Shown here one piece after another: positions 7,794-63,881 of a DNA stretch of 64,000 nt (within the stretch, counting starts at the first letter, position 1; each line of letters opens with the position of its first letter). Origin of the DNA: Siphonodentalium dalli. Taxonomy: Eukaryota > Mollusca > Scaphopoda > Gadilida > Siphonodentaliidae. The notes beneath the pieces were generated by a model that ran no database searches, was not told where the DNA came from, and saw only the letters and a list, made by a program, of their open reading frames with translations. Location: the NCBI GenBank assembly GCA_032622095.1, contig CP136063.1:63439897-63503896 (forward strand), in the 5' to 3' direction. Position numbers and translations under genes: made by a program.

Positions 7794-7796
7794 GTA

Positions 7797-8427: not shown

Positions 8428-8430
8428 GTA

Positions 8431-10396: not shown

Positions 10397-11003
10397 TCAG
10401 GAGGATCATTAGTACGTCCTAAAGATACATGGTAGTAAAAATGGTTGAAATCATCGCAAAAATAAAATTGCGAAAATTTCGCCCCCACCCTAACCAAAAA
10501 ATGTAAGTCCGACCCTGTCCAAATTATTTTTGTGAAGTATATTGACAACGGCCAGCACTACCATAGAAACTAAATCCAGCTATCTTTCTTGCTATGTGAG
10601 AACAGGCGATCAGAACATTTCGAGGTTGACATATATATGGGAGATAACTCTGGAGAGGAAAGACGGACAGAGTTTTTGATGTGCTCATGATTCAGTGGAT
10701 ATCAAGATGTATGTATCGACCAAATTTCAGTGCTGTACTCCTTATATTTTCGGAGTTCTGAAAACACCAATTGTTCACATAAAGGGAGATAACTCTGCAA
10801 ATCAAGCGAGGACATGATTCTCAATAGGCCTAAGCACTAGAGTTTGTATACATATATATACATACAAAGTTTTAGCTTTCTAACTCTTGTATTGACTGAG
10901 CTATGCTCATTATAAAATTGCTAAGAAGAATAAAGAATAATAATAATAGAGAAAAATAAAAATCACAAAAACAATATACTTCCATGTAAAACATGGAAGT
11001 ATA
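10397..11003 (+). repeat. Family D unit, left-truncated head of array 1
   Basis: From CAGGAGGATCATTAG onward this matches the next D unit at an offset of 1389 bp, up to and including the hairpin at 10975-11003. It is the truncated first unit of composite array 1. It contains two GGGAGATAACTCTG phrases and an internal AATAATAATAATAG microsatellite near 10936. Confidence 0.85.
10975..11003 (+). other. Family D terminal hairpin (second copy at 12364)
   Basis: Arms TATACTTCCATGT and ACATGGAAGTATA are perfectly complementary (13 bp) around the loop AAA. The second copy is at 12364-12392. The outer nine bases match those of the A, B and C hairpins; the inner bases are family-specific but still pair. 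Confidence 0.88.
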
Positions 11004-12392
11004 ATTAGGGAATCGCGCGGAATTGATTGTTATGTCCATAGTACGGTTTCTTGACATTTCTGTGTTCAGTTGGAACCTTCTGGTGTGACCCCCACCCATA
11101 CCTCGGAATTAGGTGACGCGGGTAGAAAAGTCACCATATCTCGGCCAATTTTCGGGATATCGAGCTAATTTTTGCGTGATTGTGTTCGCAATTGATGCCC
11201 CTTTATTATATAGTAGGGTTTTAGTAAGATATTGTGGCGATATTCTACTATGTAGGCCTATATGTATGCTGTTCAGTATATACATTTCGATTATCTCTGG
11301 CTTCCATCGACATAATACGGCAAATAGGTAATCGTTTAGAAGTACTAGCAATTCCCCATCGAATGACACCAAAAAAGTGACGATTGGTTGTAGGAATTTA
11401 AATCCATAGTGCATCTTCTGTAAACTTGATAAGAATTAATGGGCCAACATTTCTACATTTTTCAACCGATTTACAAAATTCTTTCTTGAGTACTCTCAGA
11501 ACGTCCTATAGATACTTCACAACAATTTTGGTTCGAATCTGAGACGATAAAAAATGACAATTTTTGCCCCCCTTCCTAATAGGGACAAATATTTTTGGAT
11601 CTTGGTAAAAATTGCACCAGTTCGTCTTCTCTCTATTAATAACACGCTCACATAAACCAAATCCTGCTCATGTGCGTCGTCTAGGAGGAGTTGTGCTCAC
11701 AACCACTTTCTCCTCAGCCAATGTATGAATACAATATTCGATGGTCTGTAACTTGGACATTTCTCAACCGATTTACAAAATTCTTTCAGGAGGATCATTA
11801 GTACGTCCTAAAGATACATGGTAGTAAAAATGGTTGAAATCATCGCAAAAATAAAATTGCGAAAATTTCGCCCCCACCCTAACCAAAAAATGTAAGTCCG
11901 ACCCTGTCCAAATTATTTTTGTGAAGTATATTGACAACGGCCAGCACTACCATAGAAACTAAATCCAGCTATCTTTCTTGCTATGTGAGAACAGGCGATC
12001 AGAACATTTCGAGGTTGACATATATATGGGAGATAACTCTGGAGAGGAAAGACGGACAGAGTTTTTGATGTGCTCATGATTCAGTGGATATCAAGATGTA
12101 TGTATCGACCAAATTTCAGTGCTGTACTCCTTATATTTTCGGAGTTCTGAAAACACCAATTGTTCACATAAAGGGAGATAACTCTGCAAATCAAGCGAGG
12201 ACATGATTCTCAATAGGCCTAAGCACTAGAGTTTGTATACATATATATACATACAAAGTTTTAGCTTTCTAACTCTTGTATTGACTGAGCTATGCTCATT
12301 ATAAAATTGCTAAGAAGAATAAAGAATAATAATAATAGAGAAAAATAAAAATCACAAAAACAATATACTTCCATGTAAAACATGGAAGTATA
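11004..12392 (+). repeat. Family D unit, complete (1389 bp)
   Basis: This unit runs from just after the first D hairpin to the end of the second (12364-12392). It shares its layout with family C throughout, including CTTCTGGTGTGACCCCCACC-type text, CCATATCTCGGCCAAT and GGTCTGTAACTTGGAC, but with many substitutions. No credible protein is encoded. It is followed directly by family A through the GTATAATAATG join. Confidence 0.88.
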
Positions 12393-12397
12393 ATAAT

Positions 12398-14129
12398 GAA
12401 AAATAATCGAAAAAGGGCCATAACTCTGTTAAAAGATATTGGACCAACATCCGGATACCATTATTTTTAGTAGACCTTAGATGCCTTCATTCGCTAGAGA
12501 TTTCGCGGTCCTCCTCCCATTAGTTTCTGAGTATTTCCAATTAAACAGAAAACGGCCGCAGTAGAAAAACAATATACTTCCTTGGTTACACCATGGAAGT
12601 ATAATAATAGGATCAATCATGAGTGGAAAGAATCGCAGTTTATGGACGGAAAATATGAAGTATGGTGATTATATGTTGTCCTAATATGTGTAGGTTGATC
12701 TCAAGTGTTTGGACGTGACCCACCCCTGCCTCGAAATTGGGTGACGGGATTGGGAAAACATCAACCCCTGGCACAAACTGCTAAGTTTGAGGCCCCGTAA
12801 CTTCGTCAGTTTCCAACGGATTTTAAAGTTATTTCCAGTTTTGTGATTTGCGGCTGACATAGATTGCATAGTATAAATTTCATCTGATTTGGATACGGAT
12901 AACACTTTGATTATTGGAAAGCATATGGGCCCAAATTCAAACTTGTACGGCCAAAATCTCCGCCATTTTCCAACGTATTTACGATCTGTGTTCAGCTTCG
13001 AGATCGGCTGATGTTGCAGATGTTATATTCCAAGTTTCATCTGATTCGGAGAAGAATAAAAAATTGGTACCAGGGACCACCCCTCCCCAGACCCACAATA
13101 ATGAACCGACACTGTCAAAATTTGGCCCAACGCGTGCCCTCTTCAGTCCGCACACATTTGCATTTCAGATGACATCGTATGTTCGATATCTTCGGAGGAG
13201 ATGTGGTCACAAGCACATGGGCCCAAAATTGCAAAGTTTGACGGCCTGCAATTATTTCAGTTTTCGATGGATTTTCGAAATTCTTTCAGTTTCTAGATCG
13301 GCTGATGTTGCAGATGATATATTTCAAGTTTCATCTGATTCCGAGAAGAATTAAAAATTGGTACCACGGACCACCCCTCCCCAGACCCACACTAATGAAG
13401 CGAAACTGGCAAAATTTGGCCCACCGCGTGCCCCCTTCCGTCCGCACACGTTGGCGTGTCAGATGTCATCCTATGTTCGATATCTTCGGAGGAGATGTGA
13501 GGACAAGCACATGGGCCCAAATTGCAAACTTTGAGGGCCCGTAACTCTTGCATTTCTTCTCGGATTTCAAAAATCCTTTCCGGTATGAGTTTGTTTTCGT
13601 TCGGGAAATACATAAACTTAAATATATGAATGTCAATCAAAATTTTATTTTGCAAACAATTTGCCCCCCACCCCAGTGTCAAAATATATGTCTGACCCTG
13701 TCAAAATTTCCTTCTCTGACTAAACTGACAACGGTCAACACGACTATGAAAACCACATGCAGTTATCTGGAATGATACAAGAGGACAACAGAGTACAATC
13801 AAATAGAGGTTTGCCAACTATGGGCGGTAACTCCTCAGGGAAAGCGCGGACACAAGTTCTGATGCCCGTGGGCAGTAGGGCATATCGAGATGTGTATACA
13901 GTCCAATTTTCGATGCTCTGCTCCTTATAATTTCCGAGATAATAAAATGACATTTTTTCATATAAAGGGAGATAACTCTACGGGGTAAATGCGGACAATA
14001 TCCGTTATGAGCCAAAGGCATAGAACTCATTTACCCCAACATACTTACCAAACTTGAGTTTTCTAGTACTAATACATTCCGAGATTTGGGCGTTGAAAAA
14101 TACTGTAGTATAATAATAATAATAATAAT
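12398..14129 (+). repeat. Family A unit 1 (1732 bp), array 1
   Basis: The unit starts with the module GAAAAATAATCG and its hairpin (12573-12603). A body follows, ending in ACTGTAGTATAATAATAATA. Inside the body are sub-repeats of about 293 bp beginning GCATATGGGCCC (12921), GCACATGGGCCC (13213) and GCACATGGGCCC (13507, partial). It differs from A unit 2 at 12831 (A instead of G); no indel was noticed. Reading frames inside have no domains or sensible starts. Confidence 0.92.
12573..12603 (+). other. Family A/B terminal hairpin (representative)
   Basis: Arms TATACTTCCTTGGT and ACCATGGAAGTATA pair over 14 bp with one T-T mismatch around the loop TAC. It sits 175 bp into each A or B unit. Other A copies start at 14305, 16037, 36586, 38318 and 62329. 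B copies start at 20868 and every 1723 bp to 36375, ten in all. ATAATAAT follows each. Confidence 0.85.
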
Positions 14130-15861
14130 GAAAAATAATCGAAAAAGGGCCATAACTCTGTTAAAAGATATTGGACCAACATCCGGATACCATTATTTTT
14201 AGTAGACCTTAGATGCCTTCATTCGCTAGAGATTTCGCGGTCCTCCTCCCATTAGTTTCTGAGTATTTCCAATTAAACAGAAAACGGCCGCAGTAGAAAA
14301 ACAATATACTTCCTTGGTTACACCATGGAAGTATAATAATAGGATCAATCATGAGTGGAAAGAATCGCAGTTTATGGACGGAAAATATGAAGTATGGTGA
14401 TTATATGTTGTCCTAATATGTGTAGGTTGATCTCAAGTGTTTGGACGTGACCCACCCCTGCCTCGAAATTGGGTGACGGGATTGGGAAAACATCAACCCC
14501 TGGCACAAACTGCTAAGTTTGAGGCCCCGTAACTTCGTCAGTTTCCAACGGATTTTAAAGTTGTTTCCAGTTTTGTGATTTGCGGCTGACATAGATTGCA
14601 TAGTATAAATTTCATCTGATTTGGATACGGATAACACTTTGATTATTGGAAAGCATATGGGCCCAAATTCAAACTTGTACGGCCAAAATCTCCGCCATTT
14701 TCCAACGTATTTACGATCTGTGTTCAGCTTCGAGATCGGCTGATGTTGCAGATGTTATATTCCAAGTTTCATCTGATTCGGAGAAGAATAAAAAATTGGT
14801 ACCAGGGACCACCCCTCCCCAGACCCACAATAATGAACCGACACTGTCAAAATTTGGCCCAACGCGTGCCCTCTTCAGTCCGCACACATTTGCATTTCAG
14901 ATGACATCGTATGTTCGATATCTTCGGAGGAGATGTGGTCACAAGCACATGGGCCCAAAATTGCAAAGTTTGACGGCCTGCAATTATTTCAGTTTTCGAT
15001 GGATTTTCGAAATTCTTTCAGTTTCTAGATCGGCTGATGTTGCAGATGATATATTTCAAGTTTCATCTGATTCCGAGAAGAATTAAAAATTGGTACCACG
15101 GACCACCCCTCCCCAGACCCACACTAATGAAGCGAAACTGGCAAAATTTGGCCCACCGCGTGCCCCCTTCCGTCCGCACACGTTGGCGTGTCAGATGTCA
15201 TCCTATGTTCGATATCTTCGGAGGAGATGTGAGGACAAGCACATGGGCCCAAATTGCAAACTTTGAGGGCCCGTAACTCTTGCATTTCTTCTCGGATTTC
15301 AAAAATCCTTTCCGGTATGAGTTTGTTTTCGTTCGGGAAATACATAAACTTAAATATATGAATGTCAATCAAAATTTTATTTTGCAAACAATTTGCCCCC
15401 CACCCCAGTGTCAAAATATATGTCTGACCCTGTCAAAATTTCCTTCTCTGACTAAACTGACAACGGTCAACACGACTATGAAAACCACATGCAGTTATCT
15501 GGAATGATACAAGAGGACAACAGAGTACAATCAAATAGAGGTTTGCCAACTATGGGCGGTAACTCCTCAGGGAAAGCGCGGACACAAGTTCTGATGCCCG
15601 TGGGCAGTAGGGCATATCGAGATGTGTATACAGTCCAATTTTCGATGCTCTGCTCCTTATAATTTCCGAGATAATAAAATGACATTTTTTCATATAAAGG
15701 GAGATAACTCTACGGGGTAAATGCGGACAATATCCGTTATGAGCCAAAGGCATAGAACTCATTTACCCCAACATACTTACCAAACTTGAGTTTTCTAGTA
15801 CTAATACATTCCGAGATTTGGGCGTTGAAAAATACTGTAGTATAATAATAATAATAATAAT
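14130..15861 (+). repeat. Family A unit 2 (1732 bp), array 1
   Basis: Repeats the preceding unit at exactly 1732 bp; hairpin at 14305-14335. I noticed no difference from unit 3 over the shared length. Confidence 0.92.
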
Positions 15862-17589
15862 GAAAAATAATCGAAAAAGGGCCATAACTCTGTTAAAAGA
15901 TATTGGACCAACATCCGGATACCATTATTTTTAGTAGACCTTAGATGCCTTCATTCGCTAGAGATTTCGCGGTCCTCCTCCCATTAGTTTCTGAGTATTT
16001 CCAATTAAACAGAAAACGGCCGCAGTAGAAAAACAATATACTTCCTTGGTTACACCATGGAAGTATAATAATAGGATCAATCATGAGTGGAAAGAATCGC
16101 AGTTTATGGACGGAAAATATGAAGTATGGTGATTATATGTTGTCCTAATATGTGTAGGTTGATCTCAAGTGTTTGGACGTGACCCACCCCTGCCTCGAAA
16201 TTGGGTGACGGGATTGGGAAAACATCAACCCCTGGCACAAACTGCTAAGTTTGAGGCCCCGTAACTTCGTCAGTTTCCAACGGATTTTAAAGTTGTTTCC
16301 AGTTTTGTGATTTGCGGCTGACATAGATTGCATAGTATAAATTTCATCTGATTTGGATACGGATAACACTTTGATTATTGGAAAGCATATGGGCCCAAAT
16401 TCAAACTTGTACGGCCAAAATCTCCGCCATTTTCCAACGTATTTACGATCTGTGTTCAGCTTCGAGATCGGCTGATGTTGCAGATGTTATATTCCAAGTT
16501 TCATCTGATTCGGAGAAGAATAAAAAATTGGTACCAGGGACCACCCCTCCCCAGACCCACAATAATGAACCGACACTGTCAAAATTTGGCCCAACGCGTG
16601 CCCTCTTCAGTCCGCACACATTTGCATTTCAGATGACATCGTATGTTCGATATCTTCGGAGGAGATGTGGTCACAAGCACATGGGCCCAAAATTGCAAAG
16701 TTTGACGGCCTGCAATTATTTCAGTTTTCGATGGATTTTCGAAATTCTTTCAGTTTCTAGATCGGCTGATGTTGCAGATGATATATTTCAAGTTTCATCT
16801 GATTCCGAGAAGAATTAAAAATTGGTACCACGGACCACCCCTCCCCAGACCCACACTAATGAAGCGAAACTGGCAAAATTTGGCCCACCGCGTGCCCCCT
16901 TCCGTCCGCACACGTTGGCGTGTCAGATGTCATCCTATGTTCGATATCTTCGGAGGAGATGTGAGGACAAGCACATGGGCCCAAATTGCAAACTTTGAGG
17001 GCCCGTAACTCTTGCATTTCTTCTCGGATTTCAAAAATCCTTTCCGGTATGAGTTTGTTTTCGTTCGGGAAATACATAAACTTAAATATATGAATGTCAA
17101 TCAAAATTTTATTTTGCAAACAATTTGCCCCCCACCCCAGTGTCAAAATATATGTCTGACCCTGTCAAAATTTCCTTCTCTGACTAAACTGACAACGGTC
17201 AACACGACTATGAAAACCACATGCAGTTATCTGGAATGATACAAGAGGACAACAGAGTACAATCAAATAGAGGTTTGCCAACTATGGGCGGTAACTCCTC
17301 AGGGAAAGCGCGGACACAAGTTCTGATGCCCGTGGGCAGTAGGGCATATCGAGATGTGTATACAGTCCAATTTTCGATGCTCTGCTCCTTATAATTTCCG
17401 AGATAATAAAATGACATTTTTTCATATAAAGGGAGATAACTCTACGGGGTAAATGCGGACAATATCCGTTATGAGCCAAAGGCATAGAACTCATTTACCC
17501 CAACATACTTACCAAACTTGAGTTTTCTAGTACTAATACATTCCGAGATTTGGGCGTTGAAAAATACTGTAGTATAATAATAATAATAA
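15862..17589 (+). repeat. Family A unit 3 (terminal), array 1
   Basis: Last unit of array 1; hairpin at 16037-16067. It ends in the small inverted repeat ATACT-GT-AGTAT (17564-17575) and a TAA microsatellite, four bases shorter than in internal units, and then leaves the array at CTAGAGG (17590-17596). The same truncated microsatellite and exit are seen in the terminal A units of the other two arrays. Confidence 0.92.
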
Positions 17590-17654
17590 CTAGAGGTCAG
17601 ATTCCATGGAATCAGATATACTTCCATGGTATTCCATCCCATCCCATCCCATCC
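17590..17654 (+). other. Right-end module of array 1: CTAGAGG, palindrome, ATACTTCCAT
   Basis: After CTAGAGGTCA comes a perfect 14-bp palindrome GATTCCATGGAATC (17600-17613), then ATACTTCCATGG (17618-17629), the same string as the array hairpin arm. A pentanucleotide ATCCC tract follows (about 17636-17655). The module recurs at 63882 with one difference over the 119 bases visible. A diverged version with a different but still self-complementary hairpin follows array 2 at 39871. Confidence 0.7.
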
Positions 17655-17911
17655 CGACCTGACCTTGGCCTTCAAAATGGTCAATCGAAGGTCAAATCGG
17701 GTAAAACATGCGGATTTCCACGAAATTTGATACCTAGGGGTACTTTTGTCCGGGGAGTCTTTTGGGCGGGTCAAGTCGTGACCCCGACCTGACATTGACA
17801 TTCGAAATGGTAAGTTCAAGGTCAAATCGAGTAAAACGATCGGATTTCGACGAAATTTTATACCTAGGAAACTTTTGTCCGGGGAGTGTTTTGGACAGGT
17901 CAAATCGTGAC
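17655..17911 (+). repeat. 129-bp direct repeat, two diverged copies
   Basis: Copies start at 17655 and 17784, each beginning CGACCTGAC. Shared segments are AAGGTCAAATCG, GATTTC-ACGAAATTT, ATACCTAGG and ACTTTTGTCCGGGGAGT. The beginning of the first copy also follows the right end of array 3. Divergence is moderate, so this is an older local duplication. Confidence 0.75.
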
Positions 17912-18710
17912 AATATGTTACTTTTACAGTAGAGCGGACATACCTATATAGTATATCGGTGAGCATATTCATGCATTTGCCTTGCTTCTTGCTAAGTCCG
18001 TTTGAATTTGCGTCATGAAGAGAGGGTTTGAATTTGAGTAATATATATCACCCGTCACAACGTTATACGCTACCAGGGTTAAACCGTTCAATATAAATCA
18101 TTAAAAAGTGTACTAATCTTGCGTTTATATACTACTTATCACATCCACTCATCGAAAAGTTTTTATCTCAATATATGATTTTCGGAGTAATTTTGCCCAT
18201 TTGATCTTCGGTGGAATTTTCCAAATCTGAACCCACCCGACACAAACACTCCCTTGAGCAGGTTGCGTTTATATTAGAGAGGTCAAATTTTAGAGTCATA
18301 CCTACAGTATACCGGCTTATGTACCACCGCATTAAACTCGCTCCTACATCGGCCCGTTTGGATTTGGGGCTAAAAATCGGCTAGTGATAGACTACAGAAG
18401 TATACATATTTATGATATATAGCGTTGTCACGAGTAAACCGTTCCGTTCCATCTGAAAATTAGAAAATTGCGCTCTAGATGCGCGTGAACACTAGCTATC
18501 AGATGTAGTCGTCAAAAAAAAAATTCTCGATGTTTGAATTTGAAGTATAGCGGTCAAGATTTGGGGGGGGGGGCGTGAATAGAATATCCAAATGTACCTG
18601 CTACGGCATTACCTTGGTCTTTAATTAGCCCTTTTGGATTTGGTGGGAAGAATAGGTGCATTTTCCTGTTCCCCGTATAGCGGAAAGGGGTATATATATA
18701 TAGTCACGCA
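17912..18710 (+). repeat. Degenerate ~270-360-bp repeats in spacer 1
   Basis: Two degenerate copies can be aligned by landmarks: GGTCAAATTTTAGAG (about 18281) and GGTCAAGATTTGGG (about 18552); CTCCTACATCGGCCCGTTTG and TCTTTAATTAGCCCTTTTGG with GGATTTGG; and CGTTGTCACGAGTAAACCG. The same text occurs three times at 40.98-41.9 kb in spacer 2. An 11-G run lies at 18563-18573. No gene is seen. Confidence 0.6.
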
Positions 18711-18796
18711 TTTCAATCAGTTTGGATATAAAGTTTAAATATACACAGTTATATGCCTATATATTTAATACTAATATATTTTCTTATAAATTAATA

Positions 18797-18875
18797 GCGC
18801 AGTGCGTAGTCGAGTGGTCAGAGCGTCAAACCTTCAGTTTGTGTTTTTATTGCGACGTGAGTTCGAATCCCGTCA
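18797..18875 (+). pseudogene. tRNA-like sequence 1 (A and B boxes, T-run terminator)
   Basis: Box A TAGTCGAGTGG lies at 18807-18817 and box B GAGTTCGAATCCC at 18859-18871. Between them, CAAAC and GTTTG form an anticodon-like stem around CTTCA. A run of seven T at about 18883 could terminate Pol III. The acceptor arms do not pair, the T stem has mismatches and position 33 is not T, so I call it tRNA-derived rather than a functional tRNA. Confidence 0.5.
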
Positions 18876-19068
18876 AATTATCTTTTTTTATTTTTTATTT
18901 TTAACATGTTTTGGTGTATTTTAATCATCAAATACGAATAATACCAAACTAAAGATAATGTAAAGATGCTTTTTATATTCGATTTCAATCAGTTTGGATA
19001 TAAAGTTTAAATATACACAGTTATATGCCTACATATTTAATACTAATATATTTTCTTATAAATTAACA

Positions 19069-19145
19069 GCGCAGTGCGTAGCCGAGTGGAGAGAGCGTCA
19101 AACATTCAGTTTGTGTTTTATTGCGACGTGAGTTCGAATCCCGTC
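19069..19145 (+). pseudogene. tRNA-like sequence 2
   Basis: Second copy, with box A TAGCCGAGTGG (19079-19089) and box B GAGTTCGAATCCC (19130-19142). The anticodon-like loop differs from copy 1 (CATTCAG against CCTTCAG), while the CAAA/TTTG stem is kept. It is followed by the same T-run. It has the same defects as copy 1 for a working tRNA. Confidence 0.5.
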
Positions 19146-19265
19146 AAATTATCTTTTTTTATTTTTTATTTTTAACATGTTTTGGTGTATTTTAATCATC
19201 AAATACGAATAATACCAAACTAAAGATAATGTAAAGATGCTTTTTATATTCGATAAATAACTAGA

Positions 19266-20048
19266 ATATAAACAATATACAAATTGATCTTACGAAACTG
19301 ATGATGTTTGCATGTTTCTATGTGTTTATCGTTGTTATCGCAAATGGAATAATTGGCTATACGTCGTCATTACGTTAGTAGAAATATACACCATATAACG
19401 AAGTCTTGTGTGATCAAATTAATGTAATGTTTGTATTTTGTTTGGTTGTATATGATATGCAGTGCGTTGAAGATGCGAAAGAAAATACAAAAGTGAAATG
19501 CACGCACGCAGATAGCTCATGACACACTATACACGATAAAATGATAATTTACCACACACCATGGGCTACACAATTTACGAATAGGTGGGTTTATATTAAA
19601 ATCCAAGTTATTTGCTTTATAACGGCTCCGATATGAACTCATACCAATATAGCACTCTGGAAATGATTGTTGGAATTCGACGGGCGTGCTATCAGTTCTC
19701 TGGTAGAGGAATGAGACTGGCCCGCGGCAAGACGGGTGTATTCGAATCGGAGGTAGGTTCCATCCCACGGAGGATGGGGTAGCCGGAGGAAGGAGAGAGG
19801 GGAGTGACAAATTTTTGGCGTATATATAGATAATATATATTATATATATAAGCGGAATTATTTTGAAGAGCTCTTTTCACTTGACTGAGAAAAAAATAAT
19901 GTTCTAAGTCCAAAAGTTTTGGTTGAAATATTGGAGCCTTTTTCAAAAAGTGAAAACAAAATGAACGACTTTTCTGGGACAGGTCGATTTGGATCCGTTT
20001 TGGACTCTGGATTTCCCAAAAGTCATCTCCGTTTCGCGTGTAGCATAA
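19266..20048. repeat. Dispersed 0.78-kb repeat, copy 2
   Basis: Matches 9311-10081 in direct orientation with moderate divergence. Near 19691-19745 it holds a tRNA-like stretch: a box-A-like CAGTTCTCTGGTAGAGG and a box B ATTCGAATC, better preserved than in copy 1. Its right end lies within about six bases of the abrupt start of composite array 2. Confidence 0.65.
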
Positions 20049-20053
20049 TCTGA

Positions 20054-20692
20054 ATCTTCGGAGGAGATGTGAGGACAAGCACATGGGCCCAAATTGCAAA
20101 CTTTGAGGGCCCGTAACTCTTGCATTTCTTCTCGGATTTCAAAAATCCTTTCCGGTATGAGTTTGTTTTCGTTCGGGAAATACATAAACTTAAATATATG
20201 AATGTCAATCAAAATTTTATTTTTCAAAAAATTTGCCCCCCACCCCAGTGTCAAAATATATGTCCGACCCTGTCAAATTTTCCTTCTCTGACTAAACTGA
20301 CAACGGTCAACACGACTATGAAAACCACATGCAGTTATCTGGAATGATACAAGAGGACAACAGAGTACAATCAAATAGAGGTTTGCCAACTATGGGCGGT
20401 AACTCCTCAGGGAAAGCGCGGACACAAGTTCTGATGCCCGCGGGCAGTAGGGCATATCGAGATGTGCATACAGTCCAATTTTCGATGCTCTGCTCCTTAT
20501 AATTTCCGAGATAATCAAATAACATTTTTTCAGATAAAGGGAGATAACTCATCGGGGAAAACGCGGACAATATTCGTTATGCGACGATGGCATACAACTC
20601 TTTGATCCCAAGATACGTACCAAGTTTTAGTGTGCTACTCCTGGTACTTTTCGAGTAATAAGGGTTGCAAAAGTGTCCAGTATAATAATAAT
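20054..20692 (+). repeat. Family B head, left-truncated start of array 2
   Basis: The array begins at ATCTTCGGAGGAG in mid-body and continues to the body end GTCCAGTATAATAATAAT. At its very start it reads like the A-type ATCTTCGG rather than the B-type ACCTTCGG. The rest matches the following B units at a 1723-bp offset. Confidence 0.85.
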
Positions 20693-41940: not shown

Positions 41941-41941
<1 letters not shown>

Positions 41942-41974: not shown

Positions 41975-41976
<2 letters not shown>

Positions 41977-42132
41977 AAAATCTGCCGTTTATATCCGCCA
42001 CCCGTCAGCCTGGTCTCACCACCCTCGGCCTGGTCTCACCACCCCGACCTGGTATCATTACCCAGCATGGTTTCGTCGCCTCCCCGGTTATGCTTCATCC
42101 TCTCCCATACTCCTTCATTAGCCGAATTATTT
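41975..42132. repeat. Short ~20-bp tandem repeat left of array 3
   Basis: Three degenerate copies based on CCTGGTCTCACCACCC lie at about 42010-42066. The remaining bases up to the start of array 3 show nothing recognisable. Confidence 0.45.
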
Positions 42133-51700: not shown

Positions 51701-54700
51701 TTTCGTCTTCTTTCTATGGATAACACGCTCACATAAACCAAATCCAGTTCGCGTGCGTCGTCTAGGAGGAGTTTTGTCCACAAGCACTTTCTCCTCAATC
51801 GATGTATGAATACAATTTTCGATGGTCTGTAACTTGGACATTTCTCAACCGATTTACAAAATTCTTTCAGGAGGATCATTAGTACACCCTATAGATACAC
51901 GACAGTAAAAATAGTTGAAATCATCGAAAAAAAAAATTGCGAAAATTTTGCCCCCACCCAAAACCCAAAAATATAAGTCCGTCCCTGTTCAAAACTTGTT
52001 TTCGTAGCAAGTTGATAACGGGTAACTACATAAAATCTCTCAAATATGGATACCGTGCATGTTATAGGCGGTTACATGATATGAAATAAATCGAATTTTG
52101 CGAATCATGGGCGACAACTCTGTAGAAAAAGCGCGGACATAAATTATAATGTATGGATTCAATAGGGAATCCTGAGTTATACATATGGTCCAAATTTTGA
52201 GTCTCTGCTGCTCATACTTTTCGAGATACAGCAACCCCATTTTTTCACAAAAAGGGAGATAGCTCTGTAAACCAATCGTGGACAACATCCTATATACTCT
52301 TATTAGTTAGAAATAGTATAGGTCTATATGCATACGAAATTTCAGCTCCCTATCTCTTGTACTTCCGGAGATATAAGAGTTGAAAAATTGCTTAGAATAA
52401 TAATAATAGAGGAGAAAAATAATAAATTGAATAACAATATACTTCCATATTAAAATATGGAAGTATAATAAGGGATTCGCACGGAATTGATTGGTATGTC
52501 GATAGTATGGTTTATTGACATTTCTGTGTTCAGTTGGAACGTTCTGGTGTGACCCCCACCCTTGCCTCGGAATTAGGTGATGCGTGTAGAAAAGTCGCCA
52601 TATCTCGGCCAATCTTCGAGATATCGAGCTAATTTTTGCGTCATTGTGTTCGCATTTGATGCCCCTTTAATATTTAGTAGGGTTCTAGTAAGATATTGTG
52701 GCGATATTCTACTATATAGACCTATATTAATGCTGTTCAGTACATACATTTCGATTATATCTGGCTTCCATCGACATAATAAGGCAAGTCGGTAATCGTT
52801 TAAAAGTATTATAAATTCCCCACCGAATGACACTAAACAATTGACGATTGGTTGAAGGAATTTGAATTCATAGTGCATCTTCTGTAAACTTGAAAAAAAT
52901 GAAGGGGCTACAATTTCTACATTTTTCAACCGATTCACAAAATTCACTCATAATGTCACTCGGTACATCTTATAGATACTTCACAACAATTTTGGTTCAA
53001 ATCGGAGACCAAAATAATATGACAATTTTTGCCCCCTCCCTAATATGGACCAATGTTTTTGGATCTTCGTCAAAATTGCACCATTTCGTCTTCTTTCTAT
53101 GGATAACACGCTCACATAAACCAAATCCAGTTCGCGTGCGTCGTCTAGGAGGAGTTTTGTCCACAAGCACTTTCTCCTCAATCGATGTATGAATACAATT
53201 TTCGATGGTCTGTAACTTGGACATTTCTCAACCGATTTACAAAATTCTTTCAGGAGGATCATTAGTACACCCTATAGATACACGACAGTAAAAATAGTTG
53301 AAATCATCGAAAAAAAAAATTGCGAAAATTTTGCCCCCACCCAAAACCCAAAAATATAAGTCCGTCCCTGTTCAAAACTTGTTTTCGTAGCAAGTTGATA
53401 ACGGGTAACTACATAAAATCTCTCAAATATGGATACCGTGCATGTTATAGGCGGTTACATGATATGAAATAAATCGAATTTTGCGAATCATGGGCGACAA
53501 CTCTGTAGAAAAAGCGCGGACATAAATTATAATGTATGGATTCAATAGGGAATCCTGAGTTATACATATGGTCCAAATTTTGAGTCTCTGCTGCTCATAC
53601 TTTTCGAGATACAGCAACCCCATTTTTTCACAAAAAGGGAGATAGCTCTGTAAACCAATCGTGGACAACATCCTATATACTCTTATTAGTTAGAAATAGT
53701 ATAGGTCTATATGCATACGAAATTTCAGCTCCCTATCTCTTGTACTTCCGGAGATATAAGAGTTGAAAAATTGCTTAGAATAATAATAATAGAGGAGAAA
53801 AATAATAAATTGAATAACAATATACTTCCATATTAAAATATGGAAGTATAATAAGGGATTCGCACGGAATTGATTGGTATGTCGATAGTATGGTTTATTG
53901 ACATTTCTGTGTTCAGTTGGAACGTTCTGGTGTGACCCCCACCCTTGCCTCGGAATTAGGTGATGCGTGTAGAAAAGTCGCCATATCTCGGCCAATCTTC
54001 GAGATATCGAGCTAATTTTTGCGTCATTGTGTTCGCATTTGATGCCCCTTTAATATTTAGTAGGGTTCTAGTAAGATATTGTGGCGATATTCTACTATAT
54101 AGACCTATATTAATGCTGTTCAGTACATACATTTCGATTATATCTGGCTTCCATCGACATAATAAGGCAAGTCGGTAATCGTTTAAAAGTATTATAAATT
54201 CCCCACCGAATGACACTAAACAATTGACGATTGGTTGAAGGAATTTGAATTCATAGTGCATCTTCTGTAAACTTGAAAAAAATGAAGGGGCTACAATTTC
54301 TACATTTTTCAACCGATTCACAAAATTCACTCATAATGTCACTCGGTACATCTTATAGATACTTCACAACAATTTTGGTTCAAATCGGAGACCAAAATAA
54401 TATGACAATTTTTGCCCCCTCCCTAATATGGACCAATGTTTTTGGATCTTCGTCAAAATTGCACCATTTCGTCTTCTTTCTATGGATAACACGCTCACAT
54501 AAACCAAATCCAGTTCGCGTGCGTCGTCTAGGAGGAGTTTTGTCCACAAGCACTTTCTCCTCAATCGATGTATGAATACAATTTTCGATGGTCTGTAACT
54601 TGGACATTTCTCAACCGATTTACAAAATTCTTTCAGGAGGATCATTAGTACACCCTATAGATACACGACAGTAAAAATAGTTGAAATCATCGAAAAAAAA

Positions 54701-57700
54701 AATTGCGAAAATTTTGCCCCCACCCAAAACCCAAAAATATAAGTCCGTCCCTGTTCAAAACTTGTTTTCGTAGCAAGTTGATAACGGGTAACTACATAAA
54801 ATCTCTCAAATATGGATACCGTGCATGTTATAGGCGGTTACATGATATGAAATAAATCGAATTTTGCGAATCATGGGCGACAACTCTGTAGAAAAAGCGC
54901 GGACATAAATTATAATGTATGGATTCAATAGGGAATCCTGAGTTATACATATGGTCCAAATTTTGAGTCTCTGCTGCTCATACTTTTCGAGATACAGCAA
55001 CCCCATTTTTTCACAAAAAGGGAGATAGCTCTGTAAACCAATCGTGGACAACATCCTATATACTCTTATTAGTTAGAAATAGTATAGGTCTATATGCATA
55101 CGAAATTTCAGCTCCCTATCTCTTGTACTTCCGGAGATATAAGAGTTGAAAAATTGCTTAGAATAATAATAATAGAGGAGAAAAATAATAAATTGAATAA
55201 CAATATACTTCCATATTAAAATATGGAAGTATAATAAGGGATTCGCACGGAATTGATTGGTATGTCGATAGTATGGTTTATTGACATTTCTGTGTTCAGT
55301 TGGAACGTTCTGGTGTGACCCCCACCCTTGCCTCGGAATTAGGTGATGCGTGTAGAAAAGTCGCCATATCTCGGCCAATCTTCGAGATATCGAGCTAATT
55401 TTTGCGTCATTGTGTTCGCATTTGATGCCCCTTTAATATTTAGTAGGGTTCTAGTAAGATATTGTGGCGATATTCTACTATATAGACCTATATTAATGCT
55501 GTTCAGTACATACATTTCGATTATATCTGGCTTCCATCGACATAATAAGGCAAGTCGGTAATCGTTTAAAAGTATTATAAATTCCCCACCGAATGACACT
55601 AAACAATTGACGATTGGTTGAAGGAATTTGAATTCATAGTGCATCTTCTGTAAACTTGAAAAAAATGAAGGGGCTACAATTTCTACATTTTTCAACCGAT
55701 TCACAAAATTCACTCATAATGTCACTCGGTACATCTTATAGATACTTCACAACAATTTTGGTTCAAATCGGAGACCAAAATAATATGACAATTTTTGCCC
55801 CCTCCCTAATATGGACCAATGTTTTTGGATCTTCGTCAAAATTGCACCATTTCGTCTTCTTTCTATGGATAACACGCTCACATAAACCAAATCCAGTTCG
55901 CGTGCGTCGTCTAGGAGGAGTTTTGTCCACAAGCACTTTCTCCTCAATCGATGTATGAATACAATTTTCGATGGTCTGTAACTTGGACATTTCTCAACCG
56001 ATTTACAAAATTCTTTCAGGAGGATCATTAGTACACCCTATAGATACACGACAGTAAAAATAGTTGAAATCATCGAAAAAAAAAATTGCGAAAATTTTGC
56101 CCCCACCCAAAACCCAAAAATATAAGTCCGTCCCTGTTCAAAACTTGTTTTCGTAGCAAGTTGATAACGGGTAACTACATAAAATCTCTCAAATATGGAT
56201 ACCGTGCATGTTATAGGCGGTTACATGATATGAAATAAATCGAATTTTGCGAATCATGGGCGACAACTCTGTAGAAAAAGCGCGGACATAAATTATAATG
56301 TATGGATTCAATAGGGAATCCTGAGTTATACATATGGTCCAAATTTTGAGTCTCTGCTGCTCATACTTTTCGAGATACAGCAACCCCATTTTTTCACAAA
56401 AAGGGAGATAGCTCTGTAAACCAATCGTGGACAACATCCTATATACTCTTATTAGTTAGAAATAGTATAGGTCTATATGCATACGAAATTTCAGCTCCCT
56501 ATCTCTTGTACTTCCGGAGATATAAGAGTTGAAAAATTGCTTAGAATAATAATAATAGAGGAGAAAAATAATAAATTGAATAACAATATACTTCCATATT
56601 AAAATATGGAAGTATAATAAGGGATTCGCACGGAATTGATTGGTATGTCGATAGTATGGTTTATTGACATTTCTGTGTTCAGTTGGAACGTTCTGGTGTG
56701 ACCCCCACCCTTGCCTCGGAATTAGGTGATGCGTGTAGAAAAGTCGCCATATCTCGGCCAATCTTCGAGATATCGAGCTAATTTTTGCGTCATTGTGTTC
56801 GCATTTGATGCCCCTTTAATATTTAGTAGGGTTCTAGTAAGATATTGTGGCGATATTCTACTATATAGACCTATATTAATGCTGTTCAGTACATACATTT
56901 CGATTATATCTGGCTTCCATCGACATAATAAGGCAAGTCGGTAATCGTTTAAAAGTATTATAAATTCCCCACCGAATGACACTAAACAATTGACGATTGG
57001 TTGAAGGAATTTGAATTCATAGTGCATCTTCTGTAAACTTGAAAAAAATGAAGGGGCTACAATTTCTACATTTTTCAACCGATTCACAAAATTCACTCAT
57101 AATGTCACTCGGTACATCTTATAGATACTTCACAACAATTTTGGTTCAAATCGGAGACCAAAATAATATGACAATTTTTGCCCCCTCCCTAATATGGACC
57201 AATGTTTTTGGATCTTCGTCAAAATTGCACCATTTCGTCTTCTTTCTATGGATAACACGCTCACATAAACCAAATCCAGTTCGCGTGCGTCGTCTAGGAG
57301 GAGTTTTGTCCACAAGCACTTTCTCCTCAATCGATGTATGAATACAATTTTCGATGGTCTGTAACTTGGACATTTCTCAACCGATTTACAAAATTCTTTC
57401 AGGAGGATCATTAGTACACCCTATAGATACACGACAGTAAAAATAGTTGAAATCATCGAAAAAAAAAATTGCGAAAATTTTGCCCCCACCCAAAACCCAA
57501 AAATATAAGTCCGTCCCTGTTCAAAACTTGTTTTCGTAGCAAGTTGATAACGGGTAACTACATAAAATCTCTCAAATATGGATACCGTGCATGTTATAGG
57601 CGGTTACATGATATGAAATAAATCGAATTTTGCGAATCATGGGCGACAACTCTGTAGAAAAAGCGCGGACATAAATTATAATGTATGGATTCAATAGGGA

Positions 57701-60700
57701 ATCCTGAGTTATACATATGGTCCAAATTTTGAGTCTCTGCTGCTCATACTTTTCGAGATACAGCAACCCCATTTTTTCACAAAAAGGGAGATAGCTCTGT
57801 AAACCAATCGTGGACAACATCCTATATACTCTTATTAGTTAGAAATAGTATAGGTCTATATGCATACGAAATTTCAGCTCCCTATCTCTTGTACTTCCGG
57901 AGATATAAGAGTTGAAAAATTGCTTAGAATAATAATAATAGAGGAGAAAAATAATAAATTGAATAACAATATACTTCCATATTAAAATATGGAAGTATAA
58001 TAAGGGATTCGCACGGAATTGATTGGTATGTCGATAGTATGGTTTATTGACATTTCTGTGTTCAGTTGGAACGTTCTGGTGTGACCCCCACCCTTGCCTC
58101 GGAATTAGGTGATGCGTGTAGAAAAGTCGCCATATCTCGGCCAATCTTCGAGATATCGAGCTAATTTTTGCGTCATTGTGTTCGCATTTGATGCCCCTTT
58201 AATATTTAGTAGGGTTCTAGTAAGATATTGTGGCGATATTCTACTATATAGACCTATATTAATGCTGTTCAGTACATACATTTCGATTATATCTGGCTTC
58301 CATCGACATAATAAGGCAAGTCGGTAATCGTTTAAAAGTATTATAAATTCCCCACCGAATGACACTAAACAATTGACGATTGGTTGAAGGAATTTGAATT
58401 CATAGTGCATCTTCTGTAAACTTGAAAAAAATGAAGGGGCTACAATTTCTACATTTTTCAACCGATTCACAAAATTCACTCATAATGTCACTCGGTACAT
58501 CTTATAGATACTTCACAACAATTTTGGTTCAAATCGGAGACCAAAATAATATGACAATTTTTGCCCCCTCCCTAATATGGACCAATGTTTTTGGATCTTC
58601 GTCAAAATTGCACCATTTCGTCTTCTTTCTATGGATAACACGCTCACATAAACCAAATCCAGTTCGCGTGCGTCGTCTAGGAGGAGTTTTGTCCACAAGC
58701 ACTTTCTCCTCAATCGATGTATGAATACAATTTTCGATGGTCTGTAACTTGGACATTTCTCAACCGATTTACAAAATTCTTTCAGGAGGATCATTAGTAC
58801 ACCCTATAGATACACGACAGTAAAAATAGTTGAAATCATCGAAAAAAAAAATTGCGAAAATTTTGCCCCCACCCAAAACCCAAAAATATAAGTCCGTCCC
58901 TGTTCAAAACTTGTTTTCGTAGCAAGTTGATAACGGGTAACTACATAAAATCTCTCAAATATGGATACCGTGCATGTTATAGGCGGTTACATGATATGAA
59001 ATAAATCGAATTTTGCGAATCATGGGCGACAACTCTGTAGAAAAAGCGCGGACATAAATTATAATGTATGGATTCAATAGGGAATCCTGAGTTATACATA
59101 TGGTCCAAATTTTGAGTCTCTGCTGCTCATACTTTTCGAGATACAGCAACCCCATTTTTTCACAAAAAGGGAGATAGCTCTGTAAACCAATCGTGGACAA
59201 CATCCTATATACTCTTATTAGTTAGAAATAGTATAGGTCTATATGCATACGAAATTTCAGCTCCCTATCTCTTGTACTTCCGGAGATATAAGAGTTGAAA
59301 AATTGCTTAGAATAATAATAATAGAGGAGAAAAATAATAAATTGAATAACAATATACTTCCATATTAAAATATGGAAGTATAATAAGGGATTCGCACGGA
59401 ATTGATTGGTATGTCGATAGTATGGTTTATTGACATTTCTGTGTTCAGTTGGAACGTTCTGGTGTGACCCCCACCCTTGCCTCGGAATTAGGTGATGCGT
59501 GTAGAAAAGTCGCCATATCTCGGCCAATCTTCGAGATATCGAGCTAATTTTTGCGTCATTGTGTTCGCATTTGATGCCCCTTTAATATTTAGTAGGGTTC
59601 TAGTAAGATATTGTGGCGATATTCTACTATATAGACCTATATTAATGCTGTTCAGTACATACATTTCGATTATATCTGGCTTCCATCGACATAATAAGGC
59701 AAGTCGGTAATCGTTTAAAAGTATTATAAATTCCCCACCGAATGACACTAAACAATTGACGATTGGTTGAAGGAATTTGAATTCATAGTGCATCTTCTGT
59801 AAACTTGAAAAAAATGAAGGGGCTACAATTTCTACATTTTTCAACCGATTCACAAAATTCACTCATAATGTCACTCGGTACATCTTATAGATACTTCACA
59901 ACAATTTTGGTTCAAATCGGAGACCAAAATAATATGACAATTTTTGCCCCCTCCCTAATATGGACCAATGTTTTTGGATCTTCGTCAAAATTGCACCATT
60001 TCGTCTTCTTTCTATGGATAACACGCTCACATAAACCAAATCCAGTTCGCGTGCGTCGTCTAGGAGGAGTTTTGTCCACAAGCACTTTCTCCTCAATCGA
60101 TGTATGAATACAATTTTCGATGGTCTGTAACTTGGACATTTCTCAACCGATTTACAAAATTCTTTCAGGAGGATCATTAGTACACCCTATAGATACACGA
60201 CAGTAAAAATAGTTGAAATCATCGAAAAAAAAAATTGCGAAAATTTTGCCCCCACCCAAAACCCAAAAATATAAGTCCGTCCCTGTTCAAAACTTGTTTT
60301 CGTAGCAAGTTGATAACGGGTAACTACATAAAATCTCTCAAATATGGATACCGTGCATGTTATAGGCGGTTACATGATATGAAATAAATCGAATTTTGCG
60401 AATCATGGGCGACAACTCTGTAGAAAAAGCGCGGACATAAATTATAATGTATGGATTCAATAGGGAATCCTGAGTTATACATATGGTCCAAATTTTGAGT
60501 CTCTGCTGCTCATACTTTTCGAGATACAGCAACCCCATTTTTTCACAAAAAGGGAGATAGCTCTGTAAACCAATCGTGGACAACATCCTATATACTCTTA
60601 TTAGTTAGAAATAGTATAGGTCTATATGCATACGAAATTTCAGCTCCCTATCTCTTGTACTTCCGGAGATATAAGAGTTGAAAAATTGCTTAGAATAATA

Positions 60701-62148
60701 ATAATAGAGGAGAAAAATAATAAATTGAATAACAATATACTTCCATATTAAAATATGGAAGTATAATAAGGGATTCGCACGGAATTGATTGGTATGTCGA
60801 TAGTATGGTTTATTGACATTTCTGTGTTCAGTTGGAACGTTCTGGTGTGACCCCCACCCTTGCCTCGGAATTAGGTGATGCGTGTAGAAAAGTCGCCATA
60901 TCTCGGCCAATCTTCGAGATATCGAGCTAATTTTTGCGTCATTGTGTTCGCATTTGATGCCCCTTTAATATTTAGTAGGGTTCTAGTAAGATATTGTGGC
61001 GATATTCTACTATATAGACCTATATTAATGCTGTTCAGTACATACATTTCGATTATATCTGGCTTCCATCGACATAATAAGGCAAGTCGGTAATCGTTTA
61101 AAAGTATTATAAATTCCCCACCGAATGACACTAAACAATTGACGATTGGTTGAAGGAATTTGAATTCATAGTGCATCTTCTGTAAACTTGAAAAAAATGA
61201 AGGGGCTACAATTTCTACATTTTTCAACCGATTCACAAAATTCACTCATAATGTCACTCGGTACATCTTATAGATACTTCACAACAATTTTGGTTCAAAT
61301 CGGAGACCAAAATAATATGACAATTTTTGCCCCCTCCCTAATATGGACCAATGTTTTTGGATCTTCGTCAAAATTGCACCATTTCGTCTTCTTTCTATGG
61401 ATAACACGCTCACATAAACCAAATCCAGTTCGCGTGCGTCGTCTAGGAGGAGTTTTGTCCACAAGCACTTTCTCCTCAATCGATGTATGAATACAATTTT
61501 CGATGGTCTGTAACTTGGACATTTCTCAACCGATTTACAAAATTCTTTCAGGAGGATCATTAGTACACCCTATAGATACACGACAGTAAAAATAGTTGAA
61601 ATCATCGAAAAAAAAAATTGCGAAAATTTTGCCCCCACCCAAAACCCAAAAATATAAGTCCGTCCCTGTTCAAAACTTGTTTTCGTAGCAAGTTGATAAC
61701 GGGTAACTACATAAAATCTCTCAAATATGGATACCGTGCATGTTATAGGCGGTTACATGATATGAAATAAATCGAATTTTGCGAATCATGGGCGACAACT
61801 CTGTAGAAAAAGCGCGGACATAAATTATAATGTATGGATTCAATAGGGAATCCTGAGTTATACATATGGTCCAAATTTTGAGTCTCTGCTGCTCATACTT
61901 TTCGAGATACAGCAACCCCATTTTTTCACAAAAAGGGAGATAGCTCTGTAAACCAATCGTGGACAACATCCTATATACTCTTATTAGTTAGAAATAGTAT
62001 AGGTCTATATGCATACGAAATTTCAGCTCCCTATCTCTTGTACTTCCGGAGATATAAGAGTTGAAAAATTGCTTAGAATAATAATAATAGAGGAGAAAAA
62101 TAATAAATTGAATAACAATATACTTCCATATTAAAATATGGAAGTATA
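42787..62148 (+). repeat. Family C tandem array, fourteen 1383-bp units
   Basis: The length is exactly 14 x 1383 bp, with hairpins starting at 42757 and every 1383 bp to 62119 (15 hairpins including the head). Each unit runs from ATAATAAGGGATTCGC through GTGTGACCCCCACCC, CGCCATATCTCGGCC and GTAACTTGGAC boxes to GAATAATAATAATAG, and about 50 bases later the next hairpin. The period does not vary even across a nine-A run and a TAA tract. I noticed no base difference between units. Layout and scattered identity show common descent with D (close) and with A/B (distant). No protein is credible: frames recur only because the DNA is repeated. Confidence 0.93.
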
Positions 62149-62153
62149 ATAAT

Positions 62154-63881
62154 GAAAAATAATCGAAAAAGGGCCATAACTCTGTTAAAAGATATTGGAC
62201 CAACATCCGGATACCATTATTTTTAGTAGACCTTAGATGCCTTCATTCGCTAGAGATTTCGCGGTCCTCCTCCCATTAGTTTCTGAGTATTTCCAATTAA
62301 ACAGAAAACGGCCGCAGTAGAAAAACAATATACTTCCTTGGTTACACCATGGAAGTATAATAATAGGATCAATCATGAGTGGAAAGAATCGCAGTTTATG
62401 GACGGAAAATATGAAGTATGGTGATTATATGTTGTCCTAATATGTGTAGGTTGATCTCAAGTGTTTGGACGTGACCCACCCCTGCCTCGAAATTGGGTGA
62501 CGGGATTGGGAAAACATCAACCCCTGGCACAAACTGCTAAGTTTGAGGCCCCGTAACTTCGTCAGTTTCCAACGGATTTTAAAGTTGTTTCCAGTTTTGT
62601 GATTTGCGGCTGACATAGATTGCATAGTATAAATTTCATCTGATTTGGATACGGATAACACTTTGATTATTGGAAAGCATATGGGCCCAAATTCAAACTT
62701 GTACGGCCAAAATCTCCGCCATTTTCCAACGTATTTACGATCTGTGTTCAGCTTCGAGATCGGCTGATGTTGCAGATGTTATATTCCAAGTTTCATCTGA
62801 TTCGGAGAAGAATAAAAAATTGGTACCAGGGACCACCCCTCCCCAGACCCACAATAATGAACCGACACTGTCAAAATTTGGCCCAACGCGTGCCCTCTTC
62901 AGTCCGCACACATTTGCATTTCAGATGACATCGTATGTTCGATATCTTCGGAGGAGATGTGGTCACAAGCACATGGGCCCAAAATTGCAAAGTTTGACGG
63001 CCTGCAATTATTTCAGTTTTCGATGGATTTTCGAAATTCTTTCAGTTTCTAGATCGGCTGATGTTGCAGATGATATATTTCAAGTTTCATCTGATTCCGA
63101 GAAGAATTAAAAATTGGTACCACGGACCACCCCTCCCCAGACCCACACTAATGAAGCGAAACTGGCAAAATTTGGCCCACCGCGTGCCCCCTTCCGTCCG
63201 CACACGTTGGCGTGTCAGATGTCATCCTATGTTCGATATCTTCGGAGGAGATGTGAGGACAAGCACATGGGCCCAAATTGCAAACTTTGAGGGCCCGTAA
63301 CTCTTGCATTTCTTCTCGGATTTCAAAAATCCTTTCCGGTATGAGTTTGTTTTCGTTCGGGAAATACATAAACTTAAATATATGAATGTCAATCAAAATT
63401 TTATTTTGCAAACAATTTGCCCCCCACCCCAGTGTCAAAATATATGTCTGACCCTGTCAAAATTTCCTTCTCTGACTAAACTGACAACGGTCAACACGAC
63501 TATGAAAACCACATGCAGTTATCTGGAATGATACAAGAGGACAACAGAGTACAATCAAATAGAGGTTTGCCAACTATGGGCGGTAACTCCTCAGGGAAAG
63601 CGCGGACACAAGTTCTGATGCCCGTGGGCAGTAGGGCATATCGAGATGTGTATACAGTCCAATTTTCGATGCTCTGCTCCTTATAATTTCCGAGATAATA
63701 AAATGACATTTTTTCATATAAAGGGAGATAACTCTACGGGGTAAATGCGGACAATATCCGTTATGAGCCAAAGGCATAGAACTCATTTACCCCAACATAC
63801 TTACCAAACTTGAGTTTTCTAGTACTAATACATTCCGAGATTTGGGCGTTGAAAAATACTGTAGTATAATAATAATAATAA
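62154..63881 (+). repeat. Family A unit 6 (single, terminal), array 3
   Basis: One A unit follows the C array through the same GTATAATAATG join used in arrays 1 and 2; hairpin at 62329-62359. It ends with the shortened TAA tract before CTAGAGG, exactly as units 3 and 5. I noticed no difference from unit 3. Confidence 0.92.

What the first reader, a model, noticed from the sequence alone, without database searches (positions are those of the whole stretch)
10397..63881. Three composite arrays share one plan: truncated head family, full units, A-type tail, fixed right terminus
Array 1 is D(part)-D-A-A-A, array 2 is B(part)-B x9-B module-A-A, array 3 is C(part)-C x14-A. All point the same way, all finish in A, and all leave at the same base (short TAA tract then CTAGAGG). 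An ordinary satellite would not be expected to put one family last in each of three separate arrays with an identical exit. A defined composite element, whose A part is the constant right end and whose head family is interchangeable, would explain it. So would duplication of one ancestral array followed by replacement of its left part. I do not know a described element with this structure.
Basis: partly seen in the sequence, partly recalled or inferred. Interest (0 to 1): 0.85.

Follow-up and report, generated by a model that had tools for sequence, protein, structure and literature searches.

The report
Self-nesting rolling-circle transposons carrying arrays
The three repeat arrays are separate jumping-DNA elements of the rolling-circle (Helentron) kind, each carrying many identical copies of its own front end, that landed one after another at the same spot in an older repeat array.

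Summary
The pattern is real, but the element boundaries lie elsewhere. CTAGAGG is not the arrays' right end. It is the left end (3' end CCTCTAG, read on the minus strand) of the next element. That terminus occurs 1,392 times in the genome (spacer type S1) plus 292 (type S2). In 20 of 20 loci read it follows AA; in 15 of those 20 the flank is not unit sequence. The element's other end is the palindrome ...CCATGGAAGTATAA.

The window is thus an A-unit array with Helentron/HINE-like elements inserted in its TAA tracts: E1 (D units), E2 (17590-36406, B units), E3 (39871-62149, C units) and E4. Removing E2 or E3 restores the A-A junction without target duplication (0-1 mismatches in 200 bases). The A stretches are exactly 3, 2 and 1 units. 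"All end in A" is local: B-type exits (116) match A-type (107).

Within E2 and E3 all 9 and all 14 kilobase units are letter-identical, each with the element's 5' terminus. This fits rolling-circle amplification (many 5' ends, one 3' end), reported for plant Helitrons. A Rep-helicase-endonuclease gene upstream of the same 3' end is a candidate autonomous partner. New variant of a known kind.

The parts
9007..12393 (-). E1 (partial): left part about 83-87% like the right part of S1 (9007/9315-10081), a partial D unit (10390-10971) and one full D unit; ends at the terminal palindrome. Its left (3') terminus was not found.
   Evidence: Homology; D units; 5' end TTATACTTCCATG...; no CTAG plus hairpin recognised in the listing of 1-9400.
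12394..17589 (+). Target A array, exactly 3 units of 1732 bp
17590..36406 (-). E2, a complete HINE-like element of 18,817 bp: S1 domain, partial B unit, 9 identical B units, terminal palindrome
17590..20053 (-). S1: 3' domain of E2 (2,464 bp); 3' end is subTIR CCATGGAAGTAT, palindrome GATTCCATGGAATC, then ...CCTCTAG
   Evidence: 40 of 40 scored genome places matched at 98-100%; terminus counted 1,392 times; sequence
20054..36406 (-). Partial B unit plus 9 letter-identical B units (hairpins at 20865 to 36372 every 1723 bp); each carries the element's 5' palindrome
36407..39870 (+). Target A array, exactly 2 units
39871..62149 (-). E3, a complete HINE-like element of 22,279 bp: S2 domain, partial C unit, 14 identical C units, terminal palindrome
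39871..42133 (-). S2: 3' domain of E3; subTIR ATATGGAAGTAT, palindrome AAAATTCTG/CAGAATTTT, then ...CCTCTAG
   Evidence: terminus counted 292 times; S2-to-C junction in 40 of 40 scored places
42134..62149 (-). Partial C unit plus 14 letter-identical C units (1383 bp)
62150..63881 (+). Target A array, exactly 1 unit
63882..64000 (-). E4: start of a further S1-type element that runs out of the window
   Evidence: 119 bases shared at 98-100% with the S1 copies compared

Best explanation
The window holds non-autonomous Helentron-type rolling-circle transposons (HINEs), all reading on the minus strand, inserted one after another into the TAA tracts of an older tandem array of A units. Each complete element runs from CTAG (3' end, on the left) through a spacer domain (S1 or S2), a partial unit and a row of 1.4-1.7 kb units to a terminal palindrome ...GGAAGTATAA (5' end, on the right). 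The arrays seem to end in A because A is the target that resumes after each insertion. They leave at one base because the next element sits at the same TAA tract. They point one way because the T-rich target strand is fixed within the array. Shown: both ends, the intact-site comparison, the whole-unit spacing, and the identity of units within each element. Inferred: mobilisation by a Rep-helicase-endonuclease Helentron in the same genome, and formation of each array by rolling-circle amplification of one unit, since each unit carries a 5' terminus and the element has only one 3' terminus.
For: (1) Rejoining 100+100 flank bases of E2 and of E3 gives the intact A-A junction with 0, 0 and 1 mismatches in 200 against the three junctions compared, with no target duplication. 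(2) The A stretches are 5196, 3464 and 1732 bp, exactly 3, 2 and 1 units. (3) The terminus CTAGAGG-hairpin-ATACTTCCATGG occurs 1,392 times with up to 2 mismatches, control 0. In 20 of 20 loci read it follows AA; in 15 of 20 the left flank does not match a unit. (4) Two of four short elements read in other DNA end at the same palindrome (C1_1179, C1_1351). (5) The 12-bp subterminal repeats agree between the two ends of each element and differ between elements: ATACTTCCATGG in E2, ATACTTCCATAT in E3. (6) Of 1,561 A-type tails, 1,393 run on into the next unit and 107 into CTAGAGG, leaving at most about 61 for anything else. (7) A Rep, PIF1 helicase and endonuclease ORF lies about 11.3 kb upstream, in its own sense, of the same 3' terminus (58 bp, 98%). 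Helentron-type Rep hits lie on the expected strand in 9 of 9 clusters where a terminus is listed within 300 kb. (8) 9 B units (15,507 bp) and 14 C units (19,362 bp) show 0 differences.
Against: E1's left end was not found. On the 5' side the flanking base is A if the element starts TTATAC, so the TT target of Helentrons is only half supported. Only 16 of the 31 exits with a right end within 12 kb upstream lie at whole multiples of 1732. 3 of 17 clusters with more than one exit are mixed in strand. Of the four short elements, C1_336 is cut inside the palindrome and in C1_1423 no end was found within the piece read. The three long isolated A-bearing elements were not read to a right end: one runs into N, two continue past the fetched piece. 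The autonomous candidate was not followed to its 5' end. Of 14 Helentron-type Rep hits 5 had no listed terminus nearby.
Confidence: 0.92

Rival explanations
1. One reading: one composite element whose A part is the constant right end and whose head family is interchangeable.
For: 107 A-type tails are followed by CTAGAGG at the same base.
Against: Of 1,561 A tails, 1,393 simply continue into the next unit. B-type tails do the same 116 times. The flanks of E2 and E3 rejoin to an A-A junction. CTAGAGG starts elements in unrelated DNA. Two short elements end in the palindrome.
Confidence: 0.03
2. Head-to-tail rolling-circle concatemer: the elements were laid down together by read-through past the 3' end, not by separate insertions.
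For: Tandem Helitrons formed by missed termination are known (PMC4067079, passage seen). At L035 a CTAG end directly follows a palindrome plus TAATAA.
Against: The window joins are at A's TAA tract, not at the palindrome that ends each element. E2 and E3 differ in 3' domain, units and terminal repeats, so they are not repeats of one template. The A units between them are in exact phase.
Confidence: 0.04
3. For the arrays only: the identical units arose after insertion, by unequal crossing-over or gene conversion, not by rolling-circle amplification.
For: Such homogenisation is the textbook process for satellites. The A array also shows near-identity (2 private changes in 6 units). Over-correction by the assembler could add to it.
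Against: 0 differences in 15.5 and 19.4 kb, and 0 among 5 units each at two isolated loci that differ from each other at 3 sites shared by every unit. TAA-tract length is uniform inside arrays but differs between arrays: 56 of 58 neighbouring pairs are equal, against a mean of 15 (maximum 26) in shuffles.
Confidence: 0.4

Closest known systems
Cg_HINE elements of the Pacific oyster (non-autonomous Helentrons with satellite-like central arrays; PMC7492417, Results section and passages read)
   Same: SubTIRs at both ends, a 5' inverted repeat, a microsatellite, a 3' palindrome, one array of one orientation per element, T-rich target, no target duplication.
   Different: Oyster monomers are about 140-180 bp, the arrays average under 4 monomers, and the 5' end lies outside the array. 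Here the unit is 1.4-1.7 kb, contains the 5' palindrome and the microsatellite, and is letter-identical through 9 or 14 copies.
Helentrons, HINEs and DINE-1 (PMC4067079, passages read)
   Same: SubTIR 2 nt from the 5' end, 3' subTIR followed by a palindrome; partner with Rep, helicase and endonuclease.
   Different: The 3' subTIR is 28 or 34 bp from the end here, against about 38-60 bp in mite HINEs. The target looks like A|TT rather than clearly TT. The 3' end is CTAG, as in canonical Helitrons.
Plant centromeric Helitron arrays with many 5' ends and one 3' end (Xiong et al. 2016; known here only through the review PMC12628747, section 4 part 1 read)
   Same: Tandem truncated units each with a 5' end, and a single 3' end; explained there by rolling-circle amplification.
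   Different: Those arrays are described as partly decayed. Here the units are identical, the element is of Helentron type in what looks like an animal genome, and it targets related arrays.
Pearl elements of bivalves (mentioned in a passage of PMC7492417)
   Same: HINE-like elements with central repeats in molluscs.
   Different: Short arrays of up to six repeats of about 160 bp.

Membership tests
Helentron / HINE | SubTIR close to the 5' end (about 2-4 nt in mites), with inverted-repeat partner | tested here: met
   TT|ATACTTCCATGG and TT|ATACTTCCATAT, each followed by its inverted partner
Helentron / HINE | 3' subTIR matching the 5' one, followed by a palindrome near the 3' end | tested here: met
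   12-bp repeat found 28 bp (E2) and 34 bp (E3) from the end; palindrome 10 nt from the end
Helentron / HINE | T-rich (TT) target and no target duplication | tested here: inconclusive
   No duplication; TT on the 3' side in 20 of 20 loci; on the 5' side the base is A if the element starts TTATAC
Helentron / HINE | Microsatellite and central tandem repeats | tested here: met
   TAA tract and arrays; diverged internal repeats at offsets of about 145-158 and 292-302 bp
Helentron / HINE | Autonomous partner with Rep, helicase and endonuclease and the same ends | tested here: inconclusive
   Domains found (endonuclease E 4e-5, 23.8 bits against a cut-off of 24.5); same 3' end 11.3 kb downstream; 5' end not read
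Helentron / HINE | Moves by rolling-circle replication | not testable with these tools
   Inferred from the family
Canonical Helitron | 5' end TC | tested here: not met
   5' end TTATACTTCC
Canonical Helitron | 3' hairpin about 11 nt before CTRR | tested here: met
   Palindrome 10 nt from the end, ending CTAG
Canonical Helitron | Insertion between A and T, no target duplication | tested here: met
   Best rejoin gives A|TT on the minus strand with no duplication; placement within a TAA tract is uncertain by steps of 3
Ordinary satellite array | Units at random phase at borders, no defined element ends | tested here: not met
   Fixed heads, fixed ends, whole-unit spacing in the window

The most novel reading that the evidence does not exclude
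Each transposition manufactures a fresh, clonal kilobase-scale array by rolling through units that each carry a 5' terminus, and the element then prefers the TAA tracts of earlier arrays as target. The family would thus be a self-seeding satellite factory: the arrays are both cargo and landing site, and satellite domains grow by nested insertion rather than by slow unequal exchange.
Probability: 0.35. Interest if true: 0.75.

Novelty: new variant of a known kind. Interest (0 to 1): 0.58.

Why it matters
How transposons turn into satellite DNA is an open question, and the rolling-circle route rests mostly on decayed arrays. Here are very young arrays whose units are identical through 15-19 kb, with both element ends and the intact site visible in one window. 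That makes two things testable: whether an array is born in one transposition event, and whether a transposon that targets its own relatives' arrays can build large satellite domains. It also corrects how such composite arrays should be annotated: the border lies at the palindrome, and the 'tail family' is the target.

Tried and rejected
Retro-element with 5' truncation and a TAA tail: rejected once CTAGAGG proved to start elements in unrelated DNA and the other end proved to be a palindrome.

Known RNA families and tRNA genes in the window: none reached threshold, so no ribozyme support for a retrozyme-like reading.

Macro-satellite (spacer plus array as one unit): considered, rejected because spacers also lie in unrelated DNA.

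First rejoin script placed the element end four bases too early and reported about 76 mismatches of 200. That was my coordinate error; with the palindrome end at GTATAA the result is 0-1 mismatches.

A head-versus-unit test for amplification from a single unit was uninformative: the partial head differs from its own units by 0 (E2), 1 (E3) and 1 (E1) bases, and by 0, 1 and 0 at three isolated loci.

The C7 locus (C7_252) ran into a stretch of N and was not followed.

Species: the mollusc-like impression comes from memory of GGGAGATAACTC-type repeats and from no call.
Full report
WHAT WAS CHECKED. The window is G000:C3:63439897-63503896, from a 2.23-Gb genome in 9 contigs. The pattern of an A-type end plus CTAGAGG occurs 107 times genome-wide, against 0 for the reversed control.

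CTAGAGG IS A LEFT END. The bases right of CTAGAGG are themselves conserved for more than a kilobase at most of the 20 loci first fetched, which had been chosen for an A-type exit. The 40-base terminus CTAGAGG-palindrome-ATACTTCCATGG occurs 1,392 times (724 forward, 668 reverse, up to 2 mismatches, control 0). A second type, found right of array 2, occurs 292 times. I read 20 further loci (9 full-length S1 copies and 11 places on C1). In 20 of 20 the base pair before CTAG is AA. In 5 of 20 the left flank matches an array unit; in 15 of 20 it does not. In those 5 the insertion lies in or within a few bases of the TAA tract, or just after a palindrome. Read on the minus strand this is a Helitron-type 3' end: a palindrome, ten bases ending in CCTCTAG, then TT of the target.

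THE RIGHT END IS THE PALINDROME. Four short elements were read further. C1_1179 and C1_1351 end at ...ACACCATGGAAGTATAAT followed by unrelated DNA. C1_336 is cut inside the palindrome, and C1_1423 shows no end within the piece read. In the window the same palindrome stands exactly where D, B and C give way to A.

EMPTY SITE. With the element defined as CTAG...GTATAA, E2 is 17590-36406 (18,817 bp) and E3 is 39871-62149 (22,279 bp). Joining 100 bases on each side gives the A-A junction with 0, 0 and 1 mismatches in 200 against three intact junctions of the same window, with no duplicated target bases. The A stretches left between insertions are 5196, 3464 and 1732 bp, that is 3, 2 and 1 units exactly. 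The 12-bp subterminal repeat is ATACTTCCATGG at both ends of E2 and ATACTTCCATAT at both ends of E3, so ends 19 and 22 kb apart agree with each other and differ between elements. E1 is the same on its right side, but its left end was not found; a LINE-like stretch lies in that part of the window.

GENOME-WIDE TESTS. Of 1,561 A-type tails (801+760), 1,393 run on into the next unit and 107 into CTAGAGG, so at most about 61 (4%) can be anything else; the three patterns are not of equal length, so this remainder is approximate. B-type tails run into CTAGAGG 116 times, and all tails with AGTATAATAA 378 times (control 11). Palindrome-to-TGAAAA joins, the expected right borders in such arrays, number 353. 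Using 90 of the 100 exits listed and the 100 right borders listed, 31 exits have a right border within 12 kb upstream, and 16 of these 31 lie at whole multiples of 1732 bp; by a rough estimate from the tolerance about 2% would do so by chance. The other 15 of 31 do not fit A spacing; some may be B units or carry an extra 212-bp module, which I did not test. Of 17 clusters with more than one exit, 14 are on one strand and 3 are mixed.

WHAT MOVES IT. PF14214 (Helitron Rep) gives 151 matches in this genome. One of the weaker-scoring, long-frame class, at C2:5,304,353, carries Rep, PIF1 helicase and a C-terminal endonuclease/exonuclease/phosphatase domain (E 4.3e-5, 23.8 bits, just under the curated 24.5), the domain set of Helentrons. 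The frame ends about 11.3 kb before a CCTCTAG terminus 98% identical over 58 bp to that of E2, in the same sense, inserted in a B-type TAA tract. Of 14 such Rep hits that I picked, 9 have a listed terminus within 300 kb and 9 of 9 lie on the strand expected; 5 of 14 have none in the capped lists. It is a candidate partner; its 5' end was not read.

THE ARRAYS. Each unit holds one copy of the 5' palindrome, so an element has many 5' ends and one 3' end. The 9 B units (15,507 bp) and the 14 C units (19,362 bp) show no difference at all. At two isolated loci 5 units each are identical, and the loci differ at 3 sites carried by every unit; a third locus has 2 identical units. The six A units of the target differ by two private changes in all, which suggests that the target array is older and that the assembly does not simply flatten differences. 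In the first 100 A-A junctions listed (all on contig C1), the TAA-tract length is equal in 56 of 58 neighbouring pairs within arrays, while it takes several values between arrays; shuffling gives a mean of 15 and a maximum of 26. A review describes plant Helitron arrays with multiple 5' ends and a single 3' end and explains them by rolling-circle amplification after loss of the 3' terminator (PMC12628747, section read; the original by Xiong et al. 2016 was not seen). The same explanation fits here. Fast homogenisation after insertion is not excluded. Inside units there are older diverged repeats at offsets of about 145-158 and 292-302 bp, close to the monomer size of oyster HINEs (PMC7492417), which suggests that the kilobase unit is a higher-order product of such repeats.

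COMPARISON. By structure the elements are HINE-like (PMC4067079, passages; PMC7492417, Results). They differ in unit size, in the 5' terminus lying inside the unit, in perfect identity of units, in a CTAG end, and in a 5' flank that reads A rather than T. Searches of the held library listed no paper that I recognised as describing this combination; I saw mostly titles and abstract starts, so this is no proof of absence. The plan of nested elements in satellite-Helitron loci is mentioned for oyster in PMC12628747 (passage).

VERDICT. A real and regular pattern, explained by nested insertion of Helentron-like elements at one hot site. New variant of a known kind. The step worth following is the clonal array.

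Noticed in passing
window 2296-6991, minus strand: Two long frames (1213 aa and 270 aa) that look like a non-LTR retrotransposon with endonuclease and reverse transcriptase; named by eye from the translation, not searched.
   Followed up: no
window 18710-19254: A 271-bp unit repeated twice inside S1, containing a tRNA-like stretch with A-box and B-box-like motifs and a T run after it; ARAGORN reports no tRNA.
   Followed up: no
window 17653-17911: A 130-bp direct duplication (about 84% identical) near the 3' end of S1, after CCATCC repeats.
   Followed up: no
window 41942-42057: A run of 33 T and a short CCACCCTCGGCCTGGTCTCA minisatellite in S2, just before the C array starts.
   Followed up: no
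units A and B: Diverged internal repeats at offsets of about 145, 157 and 293 bp, which may be the remains of short HINE central repeats.
   Followed up: partly
G000 C1:163.742-163.786 Mb: A-type junctions spaced 2316, 2008 or about 1421 bp in a mixed order: an array with several unit lengths.
   Followed up: no
G000: Many canonical-looking Helitron Rep hits (around 200 bits) with frames over 1,500 aa and no stop, so more than one rolling-circle lineage may be recent in this genome.
   Followed up: no
L035 and L037: CTAG ends directly after a palindrome plus TAATAA, and 8 bases past a TAA tract: variants of the same landing zone.
   Followed up: partly
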